In this document: piece by piece, positions 15,696-28,146 of the stretch
How the letters are laid out: the number at the start of each line of letters is the position of its first letter
How positions within the stretch are numbered: position 1 is the stretch's first letter
IMG/VR virus record: IMGVR_UViG_3300035703_000168
Location: 1 to 42,299 of that record
DNA: 42,299 bases
Reading direction: 5' to 3' (one strand)
Source: a virus
Notes under the pieces: generated by a model
What the model was told of the DNA's origin: nothing
Seen by the model: only the letters and a program-made list of their open reading frames with translations
Databases searched by the model: none
Position numbers and translations under genes: made by a program

Positions 15696-16310
15696 TCAAT
15701 ACCATTCATCTAAACGAGAAATAATATAATCAGCAGTCTTTTTATTGCCTAAACTAGTGAAATGTCCTATATGGTTGATGTCGCCTATAGATAATCTATC
15801 CTCTAAAAATATTGTACCTATATCGCCTATCATTCGTGTCATATCAATATCAGTGTCTATATAACCTAATGAAAACATCTCTATTCTACTTAAATTATAG
15901 TACTTTAATAATGTTTGAACTGCTTTAATATATGCGATACTATCTTTGCGCAAAACTTTATCGTTAAAATGGTCTACCATGTATGCTTTGATAAAATCTT
16001 TGTCAAAGTAATTATTTTCAGCGATGTTTATAGGGCGTCCATATCGTCTGTTAAAAATTTCTTTTCTAGTATAATCAGTCCAAACTATCATGACTAATGG
16101 ATTTTTCTTATCTTCTTCCACTATTCTTTGTATATCCGAATATGCTTTTTTAAAAATATATTCGTTACCAGCACCGCCTACACCAAAGTTATGTAATTCT
16201 AAATCATAATGTTTGGCGACTATCTCTGCAAACAAATCTGGTTTAGGAACGTCATCATTAAACGCAAAGCTGTCACCAACAACGTATAAGTAATCGAATT
16301 TTGAACGCAT
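15696..16310 (-). CDS. SGNH/GDSL-like hydrolase, copy 1
   Basis: A 204-residue protein starting MRSKFDYLYVVGDSFAFN. The GDS block (nucleophile Ser14), the block II/III-like NFGVGGAGNEY and a C-terminal INHIGHFTSLG (candidate catalytic His) match the SGNH ester hydrolase order. Possible activity is deacylation or deacetylation of glycan or lipid groups. The substrate is unknown. It follows a small unknown gene with a 6-base gap, in a cluster that includes probable core proteins. It is a distant relative of the tandem pair at 25.8-27.3 kb. Confidence 0.7.
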   Translation of the reverse strand: MRSKFDYLYVVGDSFAFNDDVPKPDLFAEIVAKHYDLELHNFGVGGAGNEYIFKKAYSDIQRIVEEDKKNPLVMIVWTDYTRKEIFNRRYGRPINIAENNYFDKDFIKAYMVDHFNDKVLRKDSIAYIKAVQTLLKYYNLSRIEMFSLGYIDTDIDMTRMIGDIGTIFLEDRLSIGDINHIGHFTSLGNKKTADYIISRLDEWY

Positions 16311-21106: not shown

Positions 21107-22504
21107 TCAGCCTTTCGACTTTAATGAATTTAGCATGTTTCTGAGTTGCGTACTCTGTACGTCTGCTGTAACGTTTTTAGTCAAGGGTTCTATATTTTCT
21201 GTGGGTGCTACTTGATTTACGCCCTTTATTCTAGTCAGAATGTCAGTTCCTGACGGTTGAGCCCTCTGATTAGTATCTTCACCATCATCTGTGATACGTA
21301 GTGTTTCCATATCGAATTTCAATTCAATCTTCTGTCCGACGCCCGAACTACTGCGAGTTTTCATCAACTGGATCTGATACAATCCACGCTCACGCATACT
21401 GCGGCTAGTAAAGATACCAAAAACGTTATCCGCAGTATTAATCTTACTGATACCACCTGAAATGTGACTATGATCGAATTCGATCTCTTCGACCGCGCTG
21501 CGATTCAACTGACTCGCTGTCACAAACAATACGTTCAATTCCTTAGCCAAATTACGCAATTCTTCTGACACATACTTGTCCTTAACGAATAGATCGCTAG
21601 GACTGACCTTTGCGCTAACTGGCATAATCAAATCAAGATAGTCAATACACAAGAAATCACACTTCATGCCAGTTTGTATCTGTAGTTCTTTGACGTATGC
21701 TCTGATATCGTTAACGTTGCTTTGTGCTGGCATGTACTTGATACGTAACTGACCAGCCTTCTTTGCAACCATCTTGACCTTCATTTCAACATTATCAATG
21801 TCTTTGAAGATTTCACGGCTGCTTGTGTCAGTCATCATACTATCAATACGCATACTACACAAGCCTTCACTCAATTCAAGTGTAACATAAACACCGTTGA
21901 GTCCATTCTGTACCCAGTTGACTGCTAGATTTTGCATGATCAAACTCTTACCTGAACCTGATCCACCTGCAAAGATTTGTAGCTCGCCGCGATTGAAACC
22001 ACCATATAGTTTCTGATCAAGTGTTGGCCAGCCTGTGCTGTTCTGTCCGTTGTTTGATTTCAATGCCATCAAACGACCACGAGGATCAGCAAAGTAATCT
22101 GTACCCATGTCCTTCTGTAGAGAAATCTGAACAGCATCTTTGATCAGTTTCTCTACAGGTCCATACTCGCCCTTCTCAAGATGATCAGCACTCTTAAGAA
22201 TAGCCCTCTCAAGTTCTTGTCGTTTAGTAAACTTTTCAAATTCTTCTAGAAACCAATCATAATGACCAGTGTCTAATTCAGGAATCGTATCAATACTTAT
22301 ACTAGTTGTAGCCTTAATTTGAATTGGATCAGGCATAACATTATACTTCTTGCTATGATCCATAATAAACTCTGCAACAGGACGTAACCTACGATCAAAG
22401 TTTTCTGGATTCATGATATTCATAACGCGAGTATATAACTCTGCGTTAGTAACCATCATTTGCAAAAACAATGTTTGTACATCAATGTTGTAGTCGTTTA
22501 TCAA
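21107..22504 (-). CDS. 41: Replicative DNA helicase (gp41/DnaB family)
   Basis: Hexameric 5'-3' helicase that unwinds the fork and recruits the primase. At 465 residues it matches T4 gp41 (475). The N-terminal domain is helical. RecA-type motifs follow: STGWPTLDQKLYGGFNRGEL at the domain entry, Walker A GGSGSGKS near 180-188, Walker B DFLCIDYLDL near 285-294, then FVTASQLNRS (motif 3 with the Gln sensor) and GGISKINTADNVFGI. The start overlaps the 3' end of the primase gene by 23 bases, which keeps primase and helicase stoichiometry coupled. Confidence 0.95.
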   Translation of the reverse strand: MINDYNIDVQTLFLQMMVTNAELYTRVMNIMNPENFDRRLRPVAEFIMDHSKKYNVMPDPIQIKATTSISIDTIPELDTGHYDWFLEEFEKFTKRQELERAILKSADHLEKGEYGPVEKLIKDAVQISLQKDMGTDYFADPRGRLMALKSNNGQNSTGWPTLDQKLYGGFNRGELQIFAGGSGSGKSLIMQNLAVNWVQNGLNGVYVTLELSEGLCSMRIDSMMTDTSSREIFKDIDNVEMKVKMVAKKAGQLRIKYMPAQSNVNDIRAYVKELQIQTGMKCDFLCIDYLDLIMPVSAKVSPSDLFVKDKYVSEELRNLAKELNVLFVTASQLNRSAVEEIEFDHSHISGGISKINTADNVFGIFTSRSMRERGLYQIQLMKTRSSSGVGQKIELKFDMETLRITDDGEDTNQRAQPSGTDILTRIKGVNQVAPTENIEPLTKNVTADVQSTQLRNMLNSLKSKG

Positions 22505-23459
22505 GTTGCTTCCTCTTTATCTCTAACTTAATTTTACTGTTTGTTGCTGATTGCAAAATACTTAGTAATGTTGGCAATTTACCATATTTTATTACTGCAT
22601 CGTTAACATCTTTAATACCATCATCCCAGTTTGGAATGCTGACATAGAATCCATAATCTAATGCTTTGTCGATGATCTCCATACCAGACTTGTCTTGGTC
22701 AGGTACAACGATAATCTTTTTATTCATTTGTTTAAGTATATCGGCTTGCATATCGCTAATTGCGTTTGTAGTTAATGCGCAACCATTGATACACAATGCG
22801 TCAAATATACCTTCTACCACTATACATACTTGCCAGTCTGGCTTTTGTAAATCTACGCCGAATAGATAACCACCCTGCTGTTCGCTAATAAACTTGGGCT
22901 TACGATCATCAAGATATCTGCTTGTGTGTCCTACTATCTTATTTTCATATGTAAATGGAATAATGATACGATTCGCTTGTCTACCTTCCATGTCTGGCGT
23001 ACACATAAAAGGATAATCTTTCACATTAACTTTTCTTTTAGTAATATAATCAACAAATATACTATGCTTTGGATCGTCAACACTAATTAATTCTGCTTCA
23101 GGCAAATGTGTTTCTTTAAATTTTATTTTCTTCTTTTCTTTTCTGACCTTAACAAAATCAAGTAAATCTTTGTGTTGTAAACTTTCAAAACTCCATTTAT
23201 CTACTTGTTCTTTATCAACACCACAATATGAAAATAGTGTTCTTGTATTTCTTGTGATAGATTTGCCAAGTACAAATCCACACTTGAATCCACAATTGAA
23301 ACAATGATAGCTCCAATTATCACCGTCCATACGTATGCCACCGCGACCTCTAGTGTCTGCCTTGTGACCACGATGCTGGCAACAGATAGCATTGAAACTA
23401 TGCCACCCGCTTTGAGTTAACTTTTTCTTGCCAGGAATTACTTGAAGAATATCAAACAC
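22482..23459 (-). CDS. 61: DNA primase (gp61-like)
   Basis: Makes RNA primers for the lagging strand together with gp41. The 325-residue protein has an N-terminal zinc site (Cys26/Cys27, His29, His32 and Cys53/Cys56 in YHCFNCGF) and a Toprim catalytic core: Glu216 in IVVEGIFDAL and Asp254/Asp256 in VVPDQDKSG. The start is GTG at 23459. A TATAAT box lies just upstream, with a weak -35 (23466-23493). Confidence 0.93.
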   Translation of the reverse strand: MFDILQVIPGKKKLTQSGWHSFNAICCQHRGHKADTRGRGGIRMDGDNWSYHCFNCGFKCGFVLGKSITRNTRTLFSYCGVDKEQVDKWSFESLQHKDLLDFVKVRKEKKKIKFKETHLPEAELISVDDPKHSIFVDYITKRKVNVKDYPFMCTPDMEGRQANRIIIPFTYENKIVGHTSRYLDDRKPKFISEQQGGYLFGVDLQKPDWQVCIVVEGIFDALCINGCALTTNAISDMQADILKQMNKKIIVVPDQDKSGMEIIDKALDYGFYVSIPNWDDGIKDVNDAVIKYGKLPTLLSILQSATNSKIKLEIKRKQLDKRLQH

Positions 23460-24367: not shown

Positions 24368-24775
24368 ATGAGTAAATACTCTGAATTTATTACGATGATA
24401 TCCAAAGACTTTTTCAAAAAACTCAGCGAAAACCATCCGTTTATAACGGTATGCTCGTACGCCAGTCAAGATTATGTAGGTATTATACAGAACAAGGATG
24501 ATACCTATACTAGTTTTTATGATTATGGCTCTATCGTCGATCCAACGGCAAAAGAACAATTTTTAAGACTAGGTGACGTTTGGTGGTGGGAAAGTAATAG
24601 ATTAATTCCTATTAACTTATTTCTTAAAGATGAATGGACTCCATTCAAACCCTATCTAAGAACCTTTAATAATAAAAGTCTTACAATAATGCATGGACCA
24701 GTTGTAAGTTTGTCTGAGTTAAGCAAGCGCCGTAGTAAGCGCAAAAGCATCACACTAGTTAAACGTTTACCTTAA
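24368..24775 (+). CDS. Conserved phage protein of unknown function (plus strand)
   Basis: A 135-residue protein (MSKYSEFITMISKDFFKKLS, then PFITVCSYASQDYVGIIQN, then GDVWWWESNRLIPINLFL) with a basic C-terminus (SKRRSKRKSI). I recognise it as a hypothetical protein conserved in aquatic T4-like phages. The WWWESNR motif and the basic tail suggest binding to nucleic acid or protein, but no fold is known to me. It stands alone on the plus strand and converges on the deformylase gene with a 9-base overlap. Confidence 0.75.
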   Translation: MSKYSEFITMISKDFFKKLSENHPFITVCSYASQDYVGIIQNKDDTYTSFYDYGSIVDPTAKEQFLRLGDVWWWESNRLIPINLFLKDEWTPFKPYLRTFNNKSLTIMHGPVVSLSELSKRRSKRKSITLVKRLP

Positions 24776-25255
24776 TTTCTTTCTTCTACGCTTTTCTTTA
24801 GCTAAGTCTAGTGAGGTTTTACCCACTCTAGTATCAAAACATACACCATCTAGGTGATCATATTCGTGCTGAAACACTCTAGCAGCAAGACCGTCTAATG
24901 TTAATTCGATTGTTTCACCCTTAGTATTCTGATATCTGACATTTACTTTTTCATATCTGTTAACACGTAGCCATAGACCGGGAAAGCTTAAACAACCTTC
25001 CAAATCTTTAACTTCACCTTCTCCTGATATAATTTCAGGATTTATGCAGGCTACTAATTTATCCAAATTACCCATAATAAACAATCGTTTATTAATACCA
25101 CATTGCGGGGCTGCTAGACCTATGCCCTTACTTTCTATCATAAGCACAGCCATTGCAGATACAAGTTCTGTAGGATCTCCGTCTGTTGTAAAATCCCAGG
25201 ATCTACTTACTTCTCGTAAAGATTTAGCATCTTCGTTGATTATTTTAATGTCCAT
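24767..25255 (-). CDS. def: Peptide deformylase
   Basis: Removes the N-formyl group from nascent proteins. All three motifs of an active metalloprotease are present: GIGLAAPQ (44-51), EGCLSF (86-91, Cys ligand) and HEYDH (130-134, two His ligands and the catalytic Glu). At 162 residues it is about the bacterial length. Phage deformylases are known from cyanophages and Vibrio phages and are thought to support fast phage protein synthesis. Its start lies 11 bases inside the upstream gene's end. Confidence 0.95.
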   Translation of the reverse strand: MDIKIINEDAKSLREVSRSWDFTTDGDPTELVSAMAVLMIESKGIGLAAPQCGINKRLFIMGNLDKLVACINPEIISGEGEVKDLEGCLSFPGLWLRVNRYEKVNVRYQNTKGETIELTLDGLAARVFQHEYDHLDGVCFDTRVGKTSLDLAKEKRRRKKLR

Positions 25256-25814
25256 TTTCTTTTAGTAAATTCATATGCACTACCACAAGATGCGCATAAG
25301 CAACTGCGTGTGACTTTTTAAAACTATAAGTTCCTTCTTCTTTTTCCCATATAGTCTTTGCTACTTCTGCCCAGGGTAGTCCTATTAGATGTTTCTTACC
25401 GGGTCTAATCACTGCTAGAAACATTGCTAGTCTTGGTATACTATTTACTACTTCGGGCATCCTCTGTAATGAATTATAGTGATTACCTATGTGTATAAGT
25501 TTTTCTACAATGATAGGGTCATTCAGCATAGACCATTCAGGTTCTTTCATTAGTTCAATTAGATGTTGTTCGTCTCTAACTTGATTGTATACGTGGACAT
25601 TCAATAGATCAAGTTTAAAATAATTTCTATTTTCAGCTTCTTCATAATCTATGCTTGATAACTTGTTGATAGGATCATATGGTATGTTAGTGATATATAC
25701 ACCCGTCTGGTGACGTTTTACCTCATTGTTCTTTCTAATAGAGGCAGGCACATGATCTATTAAAGATAATAGTTTATCTCTGTCTCCTAAATCAATATCA
25801 ATATCACTTTTCAT
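25245..25814 (-). CDS. Compact protein with DNA polymerase III alpha (DnaE/PolC)-type motifs
   Basis: A 189-residue protein whose motifs follow the order of the catalytic region of bacterial PolIII alpha. SDIDIDLGDRDKLL at its N-terminus equals the DnaE PDFDVDF...RD block, which holds two catalytic Asp. RHQTGVYI equals HxxGVVI. NYFKLDLLNVHVYNQV equals the FDFLGLxTL block, which holds the third Asp. SFKKSHAVAYA equals FNKSHAxAYA. No PHP, fingers, tau-binding or OB regions are present; DnaE is about 1160 aa. I chose the ATG at 25814 because the DIDID block follows at once. The frame extends to 25859 inside the upstream gene. It could be a minimal palm, a polymerase relic or a decoy subunit. The motif match is seen; function is inference. 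Confidence 0.65.
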   Translation of the reverse strand: MKSDIDIDLGDRDKLLSLIDHVPASIRKNNEVKRHQTGVYITNIPYDPINKLSSIDYEEAENRNYFKLDLLNVHVYNQVRDEQHLIELMKEPEWSMLNDPIIVEKLIHIGNHYNSLQRMPEVVNSIPRLAMFLAVIRPGKKHLIGLPWAEVAKTIWEKEEGTYSFKKSHAVAYAHLVVVHMNLLKENGH

Positions 25815-26556
25815 TTTTTGCCCAATGATCGAAAAAATATTCACAATGTTTTTCGTCAAAGCTTAGTCTAGCATCTTCTCCAACATTGATCAATGCATTA
25901 GGATTAGATAGGTTTTCTAGAATTATATCTGCTAGTACTCTATTGTTATATGGATTCATATGGCAATGGCGTATGTCGTACACCGTACTAATATATTTTT
26001 TTAGTCTTTTACTATTGTCAAGTTCATTATCCATTATATCAACCAAATTGTGTAATACTGCACCTTTTTGCTTACTAATATTAATTTTAGGTTGTCGTCT
26101 ATCAAAAGCGAGTACGTTAACTAATTGTATTCCATACTTGTCACATAAATGATTTACTTCGTCAAATACATGCTGATAAATGAATAGATTTAAATCGTCA
26201 TTATAAAGAAAAGGATAAACGTCAATCAATTTCTGTGCGTAATCTGAAGTTTCTTTAGGAACCCAACTTATCTGATTAGGTTCTCTGATATGCGCGATAC
26301 TTGTTAACTCGTCTGTAAGACCATTCCATCGTCCATAATGTGTGTATAGGAATACGATTTTTTCAAATCGTTTATAATGTTTTAAGAAATTTTCATAGGA
26401 ATACCATAGTCCGGAACCAGATGCTGCATAACAATGTAATTTTGCGGGAATATCATTAGCCAACCACATTGGCCATGGCAATCGTTTGTCGTTTAAATTA
26501 CGGTGTTCGGCTGGATTAAGATCAGCCCAACTATCTCCAAATACTCCTAGATTCAT
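25804..26556 (-). CDS. SGNH-like protein, tandem copy 2
   Basis: A 250-residue protein with MNLGVFGDSWADLNP (block I GDS), YAASGSGLWYS (block II-like), LYTHYGRWNG, and a C-terminal DIRHCHMNPYNN offering Asp-x-x-His/His for the catalytic pair. It is a clear paralog of the adjacent upstream gene: YNDDLNLFIYQHVFDEVN here, YNDDLNLYLYQKFFDDVN there. It may be an ester hydrolase or deacylase acting on surface sugars, or a non-enzymatic relative. It overlaps the PolIII-like gene by 11 bases and the upstream copy by 4. Confidence 0.7.
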   Translation of the reverse strand: MNLGVFGDSWADLNPAEHRNLNDKRLPWPMWLANDIPAKLHCYAASGSGLWYSYENFLKHYKRFEKIVFLYTHYGRWNGLTDELTSIAHIREPNQISWVPKETSDYAQKLIDVYPFLYNDDLNLFIYQHVFDEVNHLCDKYGIQLVNVLAFDRRQPKINISKQKGAVLHNLVDIMDNELDNSKRLKKYISTVYDIRHCHMNPYNNRVLADIILENLSNPNALINVGEDARLSFDEKHCEYFFDHWAKNEK

Positions 26557-27338
26557 AATATATTTCTTATATATTCAAAATCTTCAACAATATATCTAAA
26601 TCTTGGATCTGTACTTACATCTAAAATATCAATATTATTATATTCTAGTAAACATTCATGTACTAGTGTTCCATAGATCGTATTGTTATATGGGCTTAAA
26701 TGACAGAATCTAGGATCAGGTGATGGTATAGGGAAAACAATCTCACCGAACGGTTCATTTTCTCGCTGACTTACATCGAATAGATTAAGCAAGCAAGGAC
26801 CCTGTCTGTTACTAAGGTCTATAACTTGGCCGTGAGGCACATATCTTTCATCACTCATTAATCTAAAGTTACCCTGACTTAATTCAAAAGGCATTAGATT
26901 GATTAATTTCTTGTTATTCTTTTTGCATATTGCATTAACATCATCAAAAAATTTTTGATACAGATATAAATTTAAATCATCATTATAAAGATATTCACTT
27001 GCTTCTCTAATTGCTTTTGCAGCTTTCTGTAGTGGCTCTGGATAATCAAAGTAGTTGCCAGTGGTTAATTGGCTTAATCCTGAATACTCATCCTTAATAC
27101 CATTCCATCGCGTGTAATGAGAATATGAAAAAATAATTATATCATATTCTTCGTATGTCTGTAAAAACTTATTGAAAGAATACCATAGACTAGTGCTACT
27201 TCGTGCATAATTAGTAATTTTAGTGTTTGATAATTCTTTAAACGTATCCATCCATGGTACTAATCCTTTGCTAGCATCAATAAGATGTGCGGGTGCGCGG
27301 TCAGCAAAACTATCCCCGTATATACCTACATTAACCAT
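26553..27338 (-). CDS. SGNH-like protein, tandem copy 3
   Basis: A paralog of the downstream gene. It has NVGIYGDSFADRAP (block I), YARSSTSLWYSF, YSHYTRWNG, YNDDLNLYLYQKFFDDVN and DPRFCHLSPYNN. I chose the ATG at 27338 because it overlaps the upstream stop codon (TGATG) and directly precedes VNVGIYGDSF. An in-frame ATG at 27347 also exists. Length is 261 residues. The substrate is unknown. Having two adjacent copies plus a distant third (15.7 kb) points to divergence for different substrates. Confidence 0.7.
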   Translation of the reverse strand: MVNVGIYGDSFADRAPAHLIDASKGLVPWMDTFKELSNTKITNYARSSTSLWYSFNKFLQTYEEYDIIIFSYSHYTRWNGIKDEYSGLSQLTTGNYFDYPEPLQKAAKAIREASEYLYNDDLNLYLYQKFFDDVNAICKKNNKKLINLMPFELSQGNFRLMSDERYVPHGQVIDLSNRQGPCLLNLFDVSQRENEPFGEIVFPIPSPDPRFCHLSPYNNTIYGTLVHECLLEYNNIDILDVSTDPRFRYIVEDFEYIRNIL

Positions 27339-27592
27339 CAACTCCACCTCAACAAAAACAATATTTCTTTTTCTTCATCAATAATCTCAACTAAACATTT
27401 AGGCGGCATACCGGCTATTCTAAACACCCAACTCACAGTATCCTTACTACGCCATTCAATAAACTGACTAATAGAACTAGAATTGTATTTCCTGCCATCT
27501 TCATAATAATTTTCTTGTACGTTATCACACAACCATTGTATCATTTGCTGATGGTTTCTGTATGGTAAAACATGTCTACGAACTGCTTTCAC
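27338..27592 (-). CDS. Unknown 84-aa protein
   Basis: A small protein with a basic N-terminus (MKAVRRHVLPYRNHQQMIQW) and Trp-containing helices. ILFLLRW at the end is the only hydrophobic stretch and is too short to be a membrane span. It is translationally coupled to the SGNH copy by TGATG. It lies 8 bases downstream of the DexA-like gene. No family is recognised. Confidence 0.65.
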   Translation of the reverse strand: MKAVRRHVLPYRNHQQMIQWLCDNVQENYYEDGRKYNSSSISQFIEWRSKDTVSWVFRIAGMPPKCLVEIIDEEKEILFLLRWS

Positions 27593-27600
27593 TATTTTAT

Positions 27601-28146
27601 TTACCTAGTTAGTCCAAGCTTTTTGTATGCCTCTTGTACAACAACAGCTTGGCGTTCAGCATCTTCAACTGCTTTGTGTGTAGTTACATGTCCGCCGTCT
27701 TTGAGTTTTACACCAGCGACTTCAAACAACGTACGGGTATCACGTACAGTATAGAATGGCCATGGTATAGGATTAGGTCGTTCGCTAGTCTGGCGCATAC
27801 CTGTTTCACAAGCCACTACGTCAAAGGGAGCACCATGACTCCATACTGCCCTACGATTCCATCCTATCTTATATAATTCTTCCATAGTATCTTTAAATGA
27901 TATGCGCCCATCTTCATTAAATGCTTCATCTAATGCCGCAGGGTTCTGTTGACTCCACCATTTAATAGTATTGTCGCATATGATACGATTATATATCTCT
28001 GTTTGATCTTCGATGGTAGGTTTAAATGTCCATCGTTCAGCAACACCCTGTCCATATGGATCGAACCTTACTACGCCAATAGTAAGTATGACACAATAGG
28101 GGCTTGTGTCAAGGGTTTCCAAATCTATCATCAAATCATTAGCCAT
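27601..28146 (-). CDS. dexA: DexA-like 3'-5' exonuclease (DEDDh)
   Basis: Single-strand 3'-5' DNA exonuclease of the DnaQ/RNase T fold, as T4 exonuclease A. Motifs: Exo I MIDLETLD (Asp8, Glu10), Exo II SHGAPFDVVA, and Exo III HKAVEDAERQ with the His-x4-Asp pair. At 181 residues it is shorter than T4 DexA (227). It starts at ATG 28146, overlapping the upstream gene by 8 bases. A sigma70-like promoter (28154-28182) lies inside the upstream gene. Confidence 0.88.
   Translation of the reverse strand: MANDLMIDLETLDTSPYCVILTIGVVRFDPYGQGVAERWTFKPTIEDQTEIYNRIICDNTIKWWSQQNPAALDEAFNEDGRISFKDTMEELYKIGWNRRAVWSHGAPFDVVACETGMRQTSERPNPIPWPFYTVRDTRTLFEVAGVKLKDGGHVTTHKAVEDAERQAVVVQEAYKKLGLTR

What the first reader, a model, noticed from the sequence alone, without database searches (positions are those of the whole stretch)
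25245..25814. Stand-alone miniature PolIII-alpha-like protein
A protein of about 189 aa contains, in the correct order, four motif blocks of the catalytic region of bacterial DNA polymerase III alpha: DIDIDLGDRDKLL, HxTGVYI, YFKLDLLNV and FKKSHAVAYA. The three Asp that bind catalytic metals in DnaE have counterparts. Everything else of the 1100+ aa enzyme is absent. A phage of this type should have its own B-family polymerase (gp43). A retained palm in an otherwise missing enzyme could be a primer or repair nucleotidyltransferase, a decoy for the host clamp or tau, or a regulatory relic.
Basis: partly seen in the sequence, partly recalled or inferred. Interest (0 to 1): 0.8.

Follow-up and report, generated by a model that had tools for sequence, protein, structure and literature searches.

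The report
Half of a split phage polymerase
This small phage gene is one half of a stripped-down bacterial-type DNA polymerase whose active site is divided between two proteins made from far-apart genes; the arrangement was predicted from sequence in 2021, but I found no report of it being tested.

Summary
Window 25245-25814 (-) encodes 189 aa of PHROG 11778: the catalytic-Asp/fingers half of a C-family (DnaE/PolC) polymerase core. Its predicted structure (pLDDT 92) aligns over 184-185 of 189 residues to PolC and to E. coli DnaE 399-780; K67, D69, H35, R137, H169 and D4/D6/D8 are invariant. The GS-motif half of the palm is a separate gene (~175 aa, PHROG 11127) that ends at DnaE ~393, where this protein begins (~396). 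No intein fits. Every complete genome checked has both halves, 11 to >200 kb apart; the six examined also have a family-B polymerase. Contigs that seemed to lack the C-half lack its whole neighbourhood. In two contigs collinear with the window the partner lies ~15 kb beyond the window's left end. Most likely the two proteins dock into a ~360-aa nucleotidyltransferase serving the T4-type replisome; activity is inferred, not shown. Iyer et al. 2021 (PMC7824862) already described this split minimal Pol III alpha in jumbo phages: a new member of a known, untested kind. Added here: exact split site, R390-to-Glu change, thumb loss, strong purifying selection, and a 141.6-kb non-jumbo carrier.

The parts
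25245..25814 (-). C-half of the split minimal Pol III alpha (189 aa, PHROG 11778): metal-binding Asp triad D4/D6/D8 + D69, K67, shortened fingers
27601..28146 (-). DnaQ-superfamily 3'-5' exonuclease (PF16473); directly next to the C-half in G026, G036 and G030, here separated by inserted genes; possible but not obligate partner
24368..24775 (+). PHROG 11637, unknown function; convergent neighbour of the C-half, found beside it wherever the C-half locus is present in the contigs tested
22482..23459 (-). DNA primase (T4 gp61-like, Toprim) in the same conserved block
   Evidence: neighbours
21107..22504 (-). DnaB-like replicative helicase (T4 gp41-like) in the same conserved block
   Evidence: neighbours

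Best explanation
The gene encodes the C-terminal unit of a two-protein, minimal C-family (PolIII-alpha-like) polymerase core. The N-terminal unit (~175 aa, PHROG 11127, expected ~15 kb beyond the left end of this fragment) supplies the GRGS segment that in DnaE holds the incoming triphosphate. This protein supplies the metal-binding Asp triad, the lysine two residues before the third Asp, and shortened fingers. The split falls in the loop between DnaE residues ~393 and ~396 with almost nothing lost, so the halves most likely dock non-covalently to rebuild one palm. Shown: homology, predicted fold of each half, conservation, split site, co-occurrence, purifying selection. Inferred: physical assembly, catalytic activity, and the job, most likely short-patch DNA synthesis (gap filling, repair or primer extension) beside the phage's own family-B polymerase and gp41/gp61/gp44-type replisome. 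My sub-probabilities: C-half of a split pair 0.95; the halves bind each other 0.85; the pair catalyses nucleotidyl transfer 0.65.
For: C-half fold: PolC 3f2b Z 9.6 over 185/189 residues, E. coli DnaE 2hnh 399-780 Z 8.4, next unrelated row Z 3.5. N-half fold: M. tuberculosis DnaE Z 11.8, E. coli 278-392. hhalign against DnaE: 95.5% and 96.7%. GRGS invariant in 41/41 N-halves; D69, K67, H35, R137, H169 in 44/44 and D4/D6/D8 in all covered C-halves. Split site precise: N-half stops 1 residue after EFL in 31/35, C-half starts 5 residues before the first Asp in 32/43. Both halves in all six complete phages first examined, in 59 of the 60 records listed on each side, in XacN1 and in Slickus01, and in 7 of 8 contigs of 200 kb or more. 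The six N-only contigs also lack the DnaB helicase and PHROG 11637, so they miss the C-half locus. Purifying selection, dN/dS about 0.05-0.12. C-half lies beside primase and helicase; N-half lies near clamp-loader genes in several phages. The same proposal was made by Iyer et al. 2021 (PMC7824862).
Against: The N-half is not on this 42-kb fragment. E. coli R390, invariant in the DnaE set, is Glu or Asp in every N-half. Thumb, PHP, the YQEQ and LRRxxGKK finger segments and the whole C-terminal region are missing, so polymerisation may be weak or altered. No two-chain structure and no activity data were available. The sequence match to any single DnaE is weak.
Confidence: 0.75

Rival explanations
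1. The two halves assemble but are no longer a polymerase: a pseudo-polymerase that binds primer-template, nucleotides or the replisome and regulates the B-family polymerase or its handover.
For: R390 replaced by Glu/Asp in all N-halves, loss of thumb and of nucleotide-contacting finger segments; these phages already have a full family-B polymerase.
Against: All metal-binding Asp, K67 and the GRGS motif are invariant; a non-catalytic scaffold would be expected to lose some of them.
Confidence: 0.22
2. One reading: this protein acts alone, as a primer or repair nucleotidyltransferase, a decoy for the host clamp or tau, or a relic.
For: No N-half on this fragment; the gene is free-standing in every relative read.
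Against: It lacks the GS half of the palm; the missing half is a separate gene in every complete carrier checked; the clamp- and tau-binding parts of DnaE are not in the retained segment; dN/dS about 0.05-0.12.
Confidence: 0.02
3. A DnaE split by an intein, as in cyanobacteria: the halves are joined by protein trans-splicing into one chain.
For: Two-gene DnaE joined by a split intein is known in cyanobacteria (established knowledge; literature hits).
Against: The N-half ends 0-7 residues after the EFL block and the C-half starts a few residues before DIDID, leaving no room for intein segments. From general knowledge, the cyanobacterial split lies in the fingers, a different place.
Confidence: 0.01

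Closest known systems
Split minimal DNA polymerase III alpha of group 2.2 jumbo phages (Iyer et al. 2021, Viruses 13:63, PMC7824862); PHROG 11778 (C unit) and PHROG 11127 (N unit)
   Same: Same protein family and synteny as the carriers RaK2, Atu_ph07, Paride and others; two units from distant genes; family-B polymerase alongside.
   Different: Window is a 42-kb fragment from an uncultured phage without the N unit on it. Carriers are not only jumbo phages: Slickus01 is 141.6 kb, circular.
Bacterial DnaE / PolC (C-family replicative polymerase alpha subunit)
   Same: Palm strands with the Asp triad, K553, H511, E547, R639 and H760 equivalents; fold aligned over DnaE 399-780.
   Different: About 190 instead of ~1160 aa: no PHP, no GS half, no thumb, shortened fingers, no clamp- or tau-binding region; R390 equivalent is Glu in the partner half.
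Cyanobacterial split DnaE (split-intein trans-spliced)
   Same: A C-family polymerase encoded by two genes.
   Different: No intein segments, different split site, minimal core only.
Bacillus phage G DnaE-like polymerase in pieces (gp329, gp331, gp339)
   Same: A phage C-family polymerase annotated as several genes.
   Different: The pieces lie within ~11 kb with a homing endonuclease gene among them; Iyer et al. describe a PHP-containing enzyme there, not a minimal core.

Membership tests
Split minimal Pol III alpha, C-terminal unit (PHROG 11778; Iyer et al. 2021) | Homology to the Mg2+- and template-binding C-terminal subdomain of the Pol III alpha catalytic core | tested here: met
   PHROG 11778 E 7.2e-60; fold Z 9.6/8.4 to PolC/DnaE; hhalign 95.5%
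Split minimal Pol III alpha, C-terminal unit (PHROG 11778; Iyer et al. 2021) | A separate, distantly located gene encodes the N-terminal NTP-binding unit | tested here: inconclusive
   Met in all complete carriers checked and in collinear contigs G026 and G036; absent from the window, which is a fragment ending ~15 kb short of the expected place
Split minimal Pol III alpha, C-terminal unit (PHROG 11778; Iyer et al. 2021) | Accompanied by a family-B DNA polymerase | tested here: inconclusive
   Met in 6/6 complete phages and 9/10 long contigs; not on the window fragment
Split minimal Pol III alpha, C-terminal unit (PHROG 11778; Iyer et al. 2021) | Genome of a group 2.2 jumbo phage (over 200 kb, T4-like replisome) | tested here: inconclusive
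   T4-type primase, helicase, UvsX and SSB genes present in the window, but genome size unknown; Slickus01 shows size over 200 kb is not required
Full-length DnaE/PolC | PHP, complete palm with GS motif, thumb, complete fingers, clamp-binding region in one chain | tested here: not met
   189 aa starting at DnaE ~396; 26 residues replace ~105 between the Asp block and the H511 equivalent
Split-intein DnaE | Intein segments at the C-terminus of the N part and the N-terminus of the C part | tested here: not met
   0-7 residues after EFL in 35 N-halves; C-half starts almost at DIDID
Catalytically active C-family polymerase | Conserved metal-binding Asp triad and GS motif | tested here: met
   Invariant in the C-half and N-half alignments
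Catalytically active C-family polymerase | Conserved R390 of DnaE | tested here: not met
   Glu in 39 and Asp in 2 of 41 N-halves; Arg invariant in the 12-sequence DnaE alignment
Catalytically active C-family polymerase | Template-directed nucleotidyl transfer | not testable with these tools
   Needs biochemistry on the purified pair

The most novel reading that the evidence does not exclude
The two ~180-aa proteins form the smallest natural C-family polymerase, an active two-chain enzyme without a thumb, in which the R390-to-Glu change and the lost finger segment mark a distinct substrate or function (for example a specialised gap-filling or primer-modifying nucleotidyltransferase). Its two-piece form may resemble the state before the palm was fused in cellular DnaE, as Iyer et al. 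suggested, and it extends beyond jumbo phages.
Probability: 0.25. Interest if true: 0.85.

Novelty: new member of a known kind. Interest (0 to 1): 0.5.

Why it matters
A polymerase whose active site is divided between two small proteins from distant genes is unusual among replication enzymes. Here it is conserved across phages of enterobacteria, Pseudomonas, Xanthomonas, rhizobia, Vibrio, Alishewanella and many uncultured phages, although the genomes examined already own a complete family-B replicase. It makes two open questions directly testable with two 20-kDa proteins: whether a thumb-less C-family core can synthesise DNA, and why these phages keep two kinds of polymerase. In many records the genes are still called 'hypothetical protein' or 'membrane protein'.

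Tried and rejected
Single-sequence searches were uninformative: Pfam no hit, PDB phmmer only a chance hit, PDB hmmsearch with A3 only chance, single E. coli DnaE against A3 only the NKSH block. A more diverse DnaE alignment was needed. The scan of genome contigs with E. coli DnaE returned only close gammaproteobacterial relatives. The PF16473 exonuclease as an obligate third subunit was rejected: no match in 4 of 6 complete phages, although it is next to the C-half in three contigs. N-half contigs that seemed to lack the C-half (G022, G023, G024, G028, G032, G033) were first taken as exceptions; all six also lack the DnaB helicase and the PHROG 11637 neighbour, so they miss that locus. The longer ORF in G016 that matched the N-half profile is a different, larger DnaE-like protein, not a fused pair. 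RNA structure around the start codon: nothing unusual (z -0.08). Bacillus phage G's DnaE in pieces is a different case. Papers: only Iyer et al. describe the split enzyme; no experimental work was found in the held library.

Full report
WHAT IS THERE. The finding's coordinates hold one ORF on the minus strand, ATG at 25814 to stop at 25245, 189 aa. P0001 scores 21.6 bits against an HMM of 12 DnaE sequences, against at most 5.2 for 1000 shuffles; 44 family members have a median of 21.7. It belongs to PHROG 11778 'DNA polymerase' (E 7.2e-60). A viral-contig scan returned 76 relatives and a phage-record search 63. The 51 relatives read out are all free-standing genes of similar length.

IT IS A DnaE CORE FRAGMENT. 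AlphaFold2 on alignment A3 gives mean pLDDT 92.1, pTM 0.80. Against the PDB, the 15 best structural alignments are all C-family polymerases: PolC 3f2b Z 9.6, rmsd 3.2, 185 of 189 residues; E. coli DnaE 2hnh Z 8.4, 184 residues, chain 399-780. The next, unrelated row has Z 3.5. Foldseek alone is weaker but also ranks only DnaE chains at the top, best E 2.6e-3. Profile-profile comparison with a DnaE alignment gives 95.5%, E 1.5e-8. The correspondences, read from the motif alignments, are D4/D6/D8 = D401/D403/D405, H35 = H511, E61 = E547, K67 = K553, D69 = D555, R137 = R639, H169 = H760 (E. coli numbers). In 44 aligned relatives D69, K67, H35, R137 and H169 never vary, and D4, D6, D8 never vary where the row covers them (the one uncovered row has DIDID just upstream). 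Between the first Asp block and H35 this protein has 26 residues where DnaE has about 105, so the thumb is gone. The finger segments with YQEQ and LRRxxGKK are also gone. Distances between the Asp side chains were not measured.

THE OTHER HALF. The triphosphate-binding GS motif of the palm precedes D401 in DnaE and cannot be in a protein that starts at DnaE ~396. A search for PF07733 in six complete carrier phages (Atu_ph07, RaK2, Paride, Phosso, Vibrio 2.275.O, SCTP-2) found in every one a second small gene matching only positions ~18-98 of that family. These genes encode 169-181 aa and stop at sequences such as WGVGRGSSVASYVLFLIGIHRVNSITYELDFDEFLN. This is PHROG 11127. Its model (pLDDT 92.3) aligns over residues 78-177 to C-family polymerases only: Z 11.8 to M. 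tuberculosis DnaE; E. coli 278-392. hhalign gives 96.7%. So the N-half covers DnaE ~278-393 plus ~77 N-terminal residues of unknown origin, and the C-half covers ~396-780. In 31 of 35 N-halves the protein stops one residue after EFL; in 32 of 43 C-halves the last methionine is five residues before the first Asp. The palm is cut in one short loop and nothing is left over for an intein.

THE HALVES GO TOGETHER. tblastn with the RaK2 N-half finds 60 phage records; with P0001, 63. Of the 60 listed for each, 59 are shared. The one listed only for N, XacN1, has the C-half. The one listed only for C, PP728206, is 109.5 kb where its relatives are ~350 kb, so it looks partial. Slickus01, a low-ranking C record, is a 141.6-kb circular genome in which a profile search finds the N-half at 79799-80314, E 2.8e-19. 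One of the 63 records was never displayed and is unchecked. Among eight N-half viral contigs of at least 200 kb, seven have the C-half. The eighth (G024) and five shorter ones lack not only the C-half but also any DnaB helicase and any PHROG 11637 neighbour, so that locus is missing from them. Distances between the halves run from ~11 kb (Slickus01) through ~30-45 kb (RaK2, Paride, Vibrio) to over 100 kb (SCTP-2, G025, Atu_ph07, Phosso).

THE WINDOW. It is a 42.3-kb viral record without N-half or B-family polymerase. It is collinear with G026 (111 kb) and G036 (76 kb): window 3.5 kb corresponds to 31.4-32.0 kb and 23.4-24.0 kb there, and their N-halves lie at 50.6 and 43.6 kb. The window's N-half is therefore expected ~15 kb beyond its left end. 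The order C-half, PHROG 11637 on the other strand, ~270-aa gene, gp61 primase, gp41 helicase, small PHROG 11854 protein is shared with RaK2 and largely with Atu_ph07, Paride, Phosso, SCTP-2 and Vibrio 2.275.O. Family-B polymerase genes occur in 6/6 complete phages and 9/10 long contigs.

SELECTION. Pairwise dN/dS among close C-halves is about 0.05-0.12, with synonymous sites near saturation, so the ratios are rough. This still argues strongly against a decaying relic.

MECHANISM (inferred). Two ~20-kDa proteins dock across the palm and make one nucleotidyltransferase site: GRGS from the N-half; metals, K67 and short fingers from the C-half. It would serve the T4-type replisome: the N-half sits near clamp-loader genes in several phages, the C-half beside primase and helicase. 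Because thumb, PHP and clamp-binding parts are missing, short-patch synthesis is more likely than replication of the genome. A caution: E. coli R390, invariant in the DnaE set, is Glu or Asp in every N-half. I recall R390 being placed near the triphosphate in DnaE structures; that is memory, not a test. A catalytically altered or regulatory pair therefore stays possible.

KNOWN OR NEW. Iyer et al. 2021 (PMC7824862, sections 3.4.1 and 3.5; [quoted passage not shown] Further searches found no later or experimental work in the held library. The window is a new member. Not stated in the passages I read: the exact split site and absence of inteins, the R390 change, the thumb loss mapped on structure, the explained exceptions to co-occurrence, and a non-jumbo carrier.

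Noticed in passing
window 24767-25255 (-): Peptide deformylase gene (PF01327, E 1.6e-40) sits between the C-half and its usual neighbour PHROG 11637; it has no match in the collinear stretches of G026, G036 or G025, so it looks like an insertion into a conserved block.
   Followed up: partly
window 25804-27347 (-): Two tandem ORFs (250 and 264 aa, starting ..FGDSWAD.. and ..YGDSFAD.., SGNH-hydrolase-like by eye) lie between the exonuclease and the C-half; no PHROG or Pfam match, none in collinear contigs. A third ORF with a similar start (VGDSFAF) lies at 15696-16310.
   Followed up: no
OQ508957 (L304-L306), record positions 68346-68957 and 79799-80314: Alishewanella phage Slickus01, 141.6 kb circular, carries both halves only ~11 kb apart: the pair is not limited to phages over 200 kb.
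   Followed up: yes
L187 (start of G016, contig IMGVR_UViG_3300020406_000031): The contig of relative L058 carries the small C-half and also part of a much larger, separate DnaE-like protein (581-aa open frame with its own GS-like, DIDIDF and KIDIL blocks).
   Followed up: partly
PHROG 13169 (463 positions) and PHROG 12219 (823 positions): The matched profile positions suggest these could be N and C parts of another phage DnaE divided near the same region of the palm; judged only from profile coordinates.
   Followed up: no
N-half residues 1-77 (L107:8001-8231 +): About 77 N-terminal residues of the N-half are confidently folded (pLDDT about 90) but were not covered by the DnaE matches; their origin is unknown.
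   Followed up: no
public records of RaK2-like and related phages: The C-half is annotated 'putative membrane protein' or 'hypothetical protein' in many records, which hides the pair.
   Followed up: no
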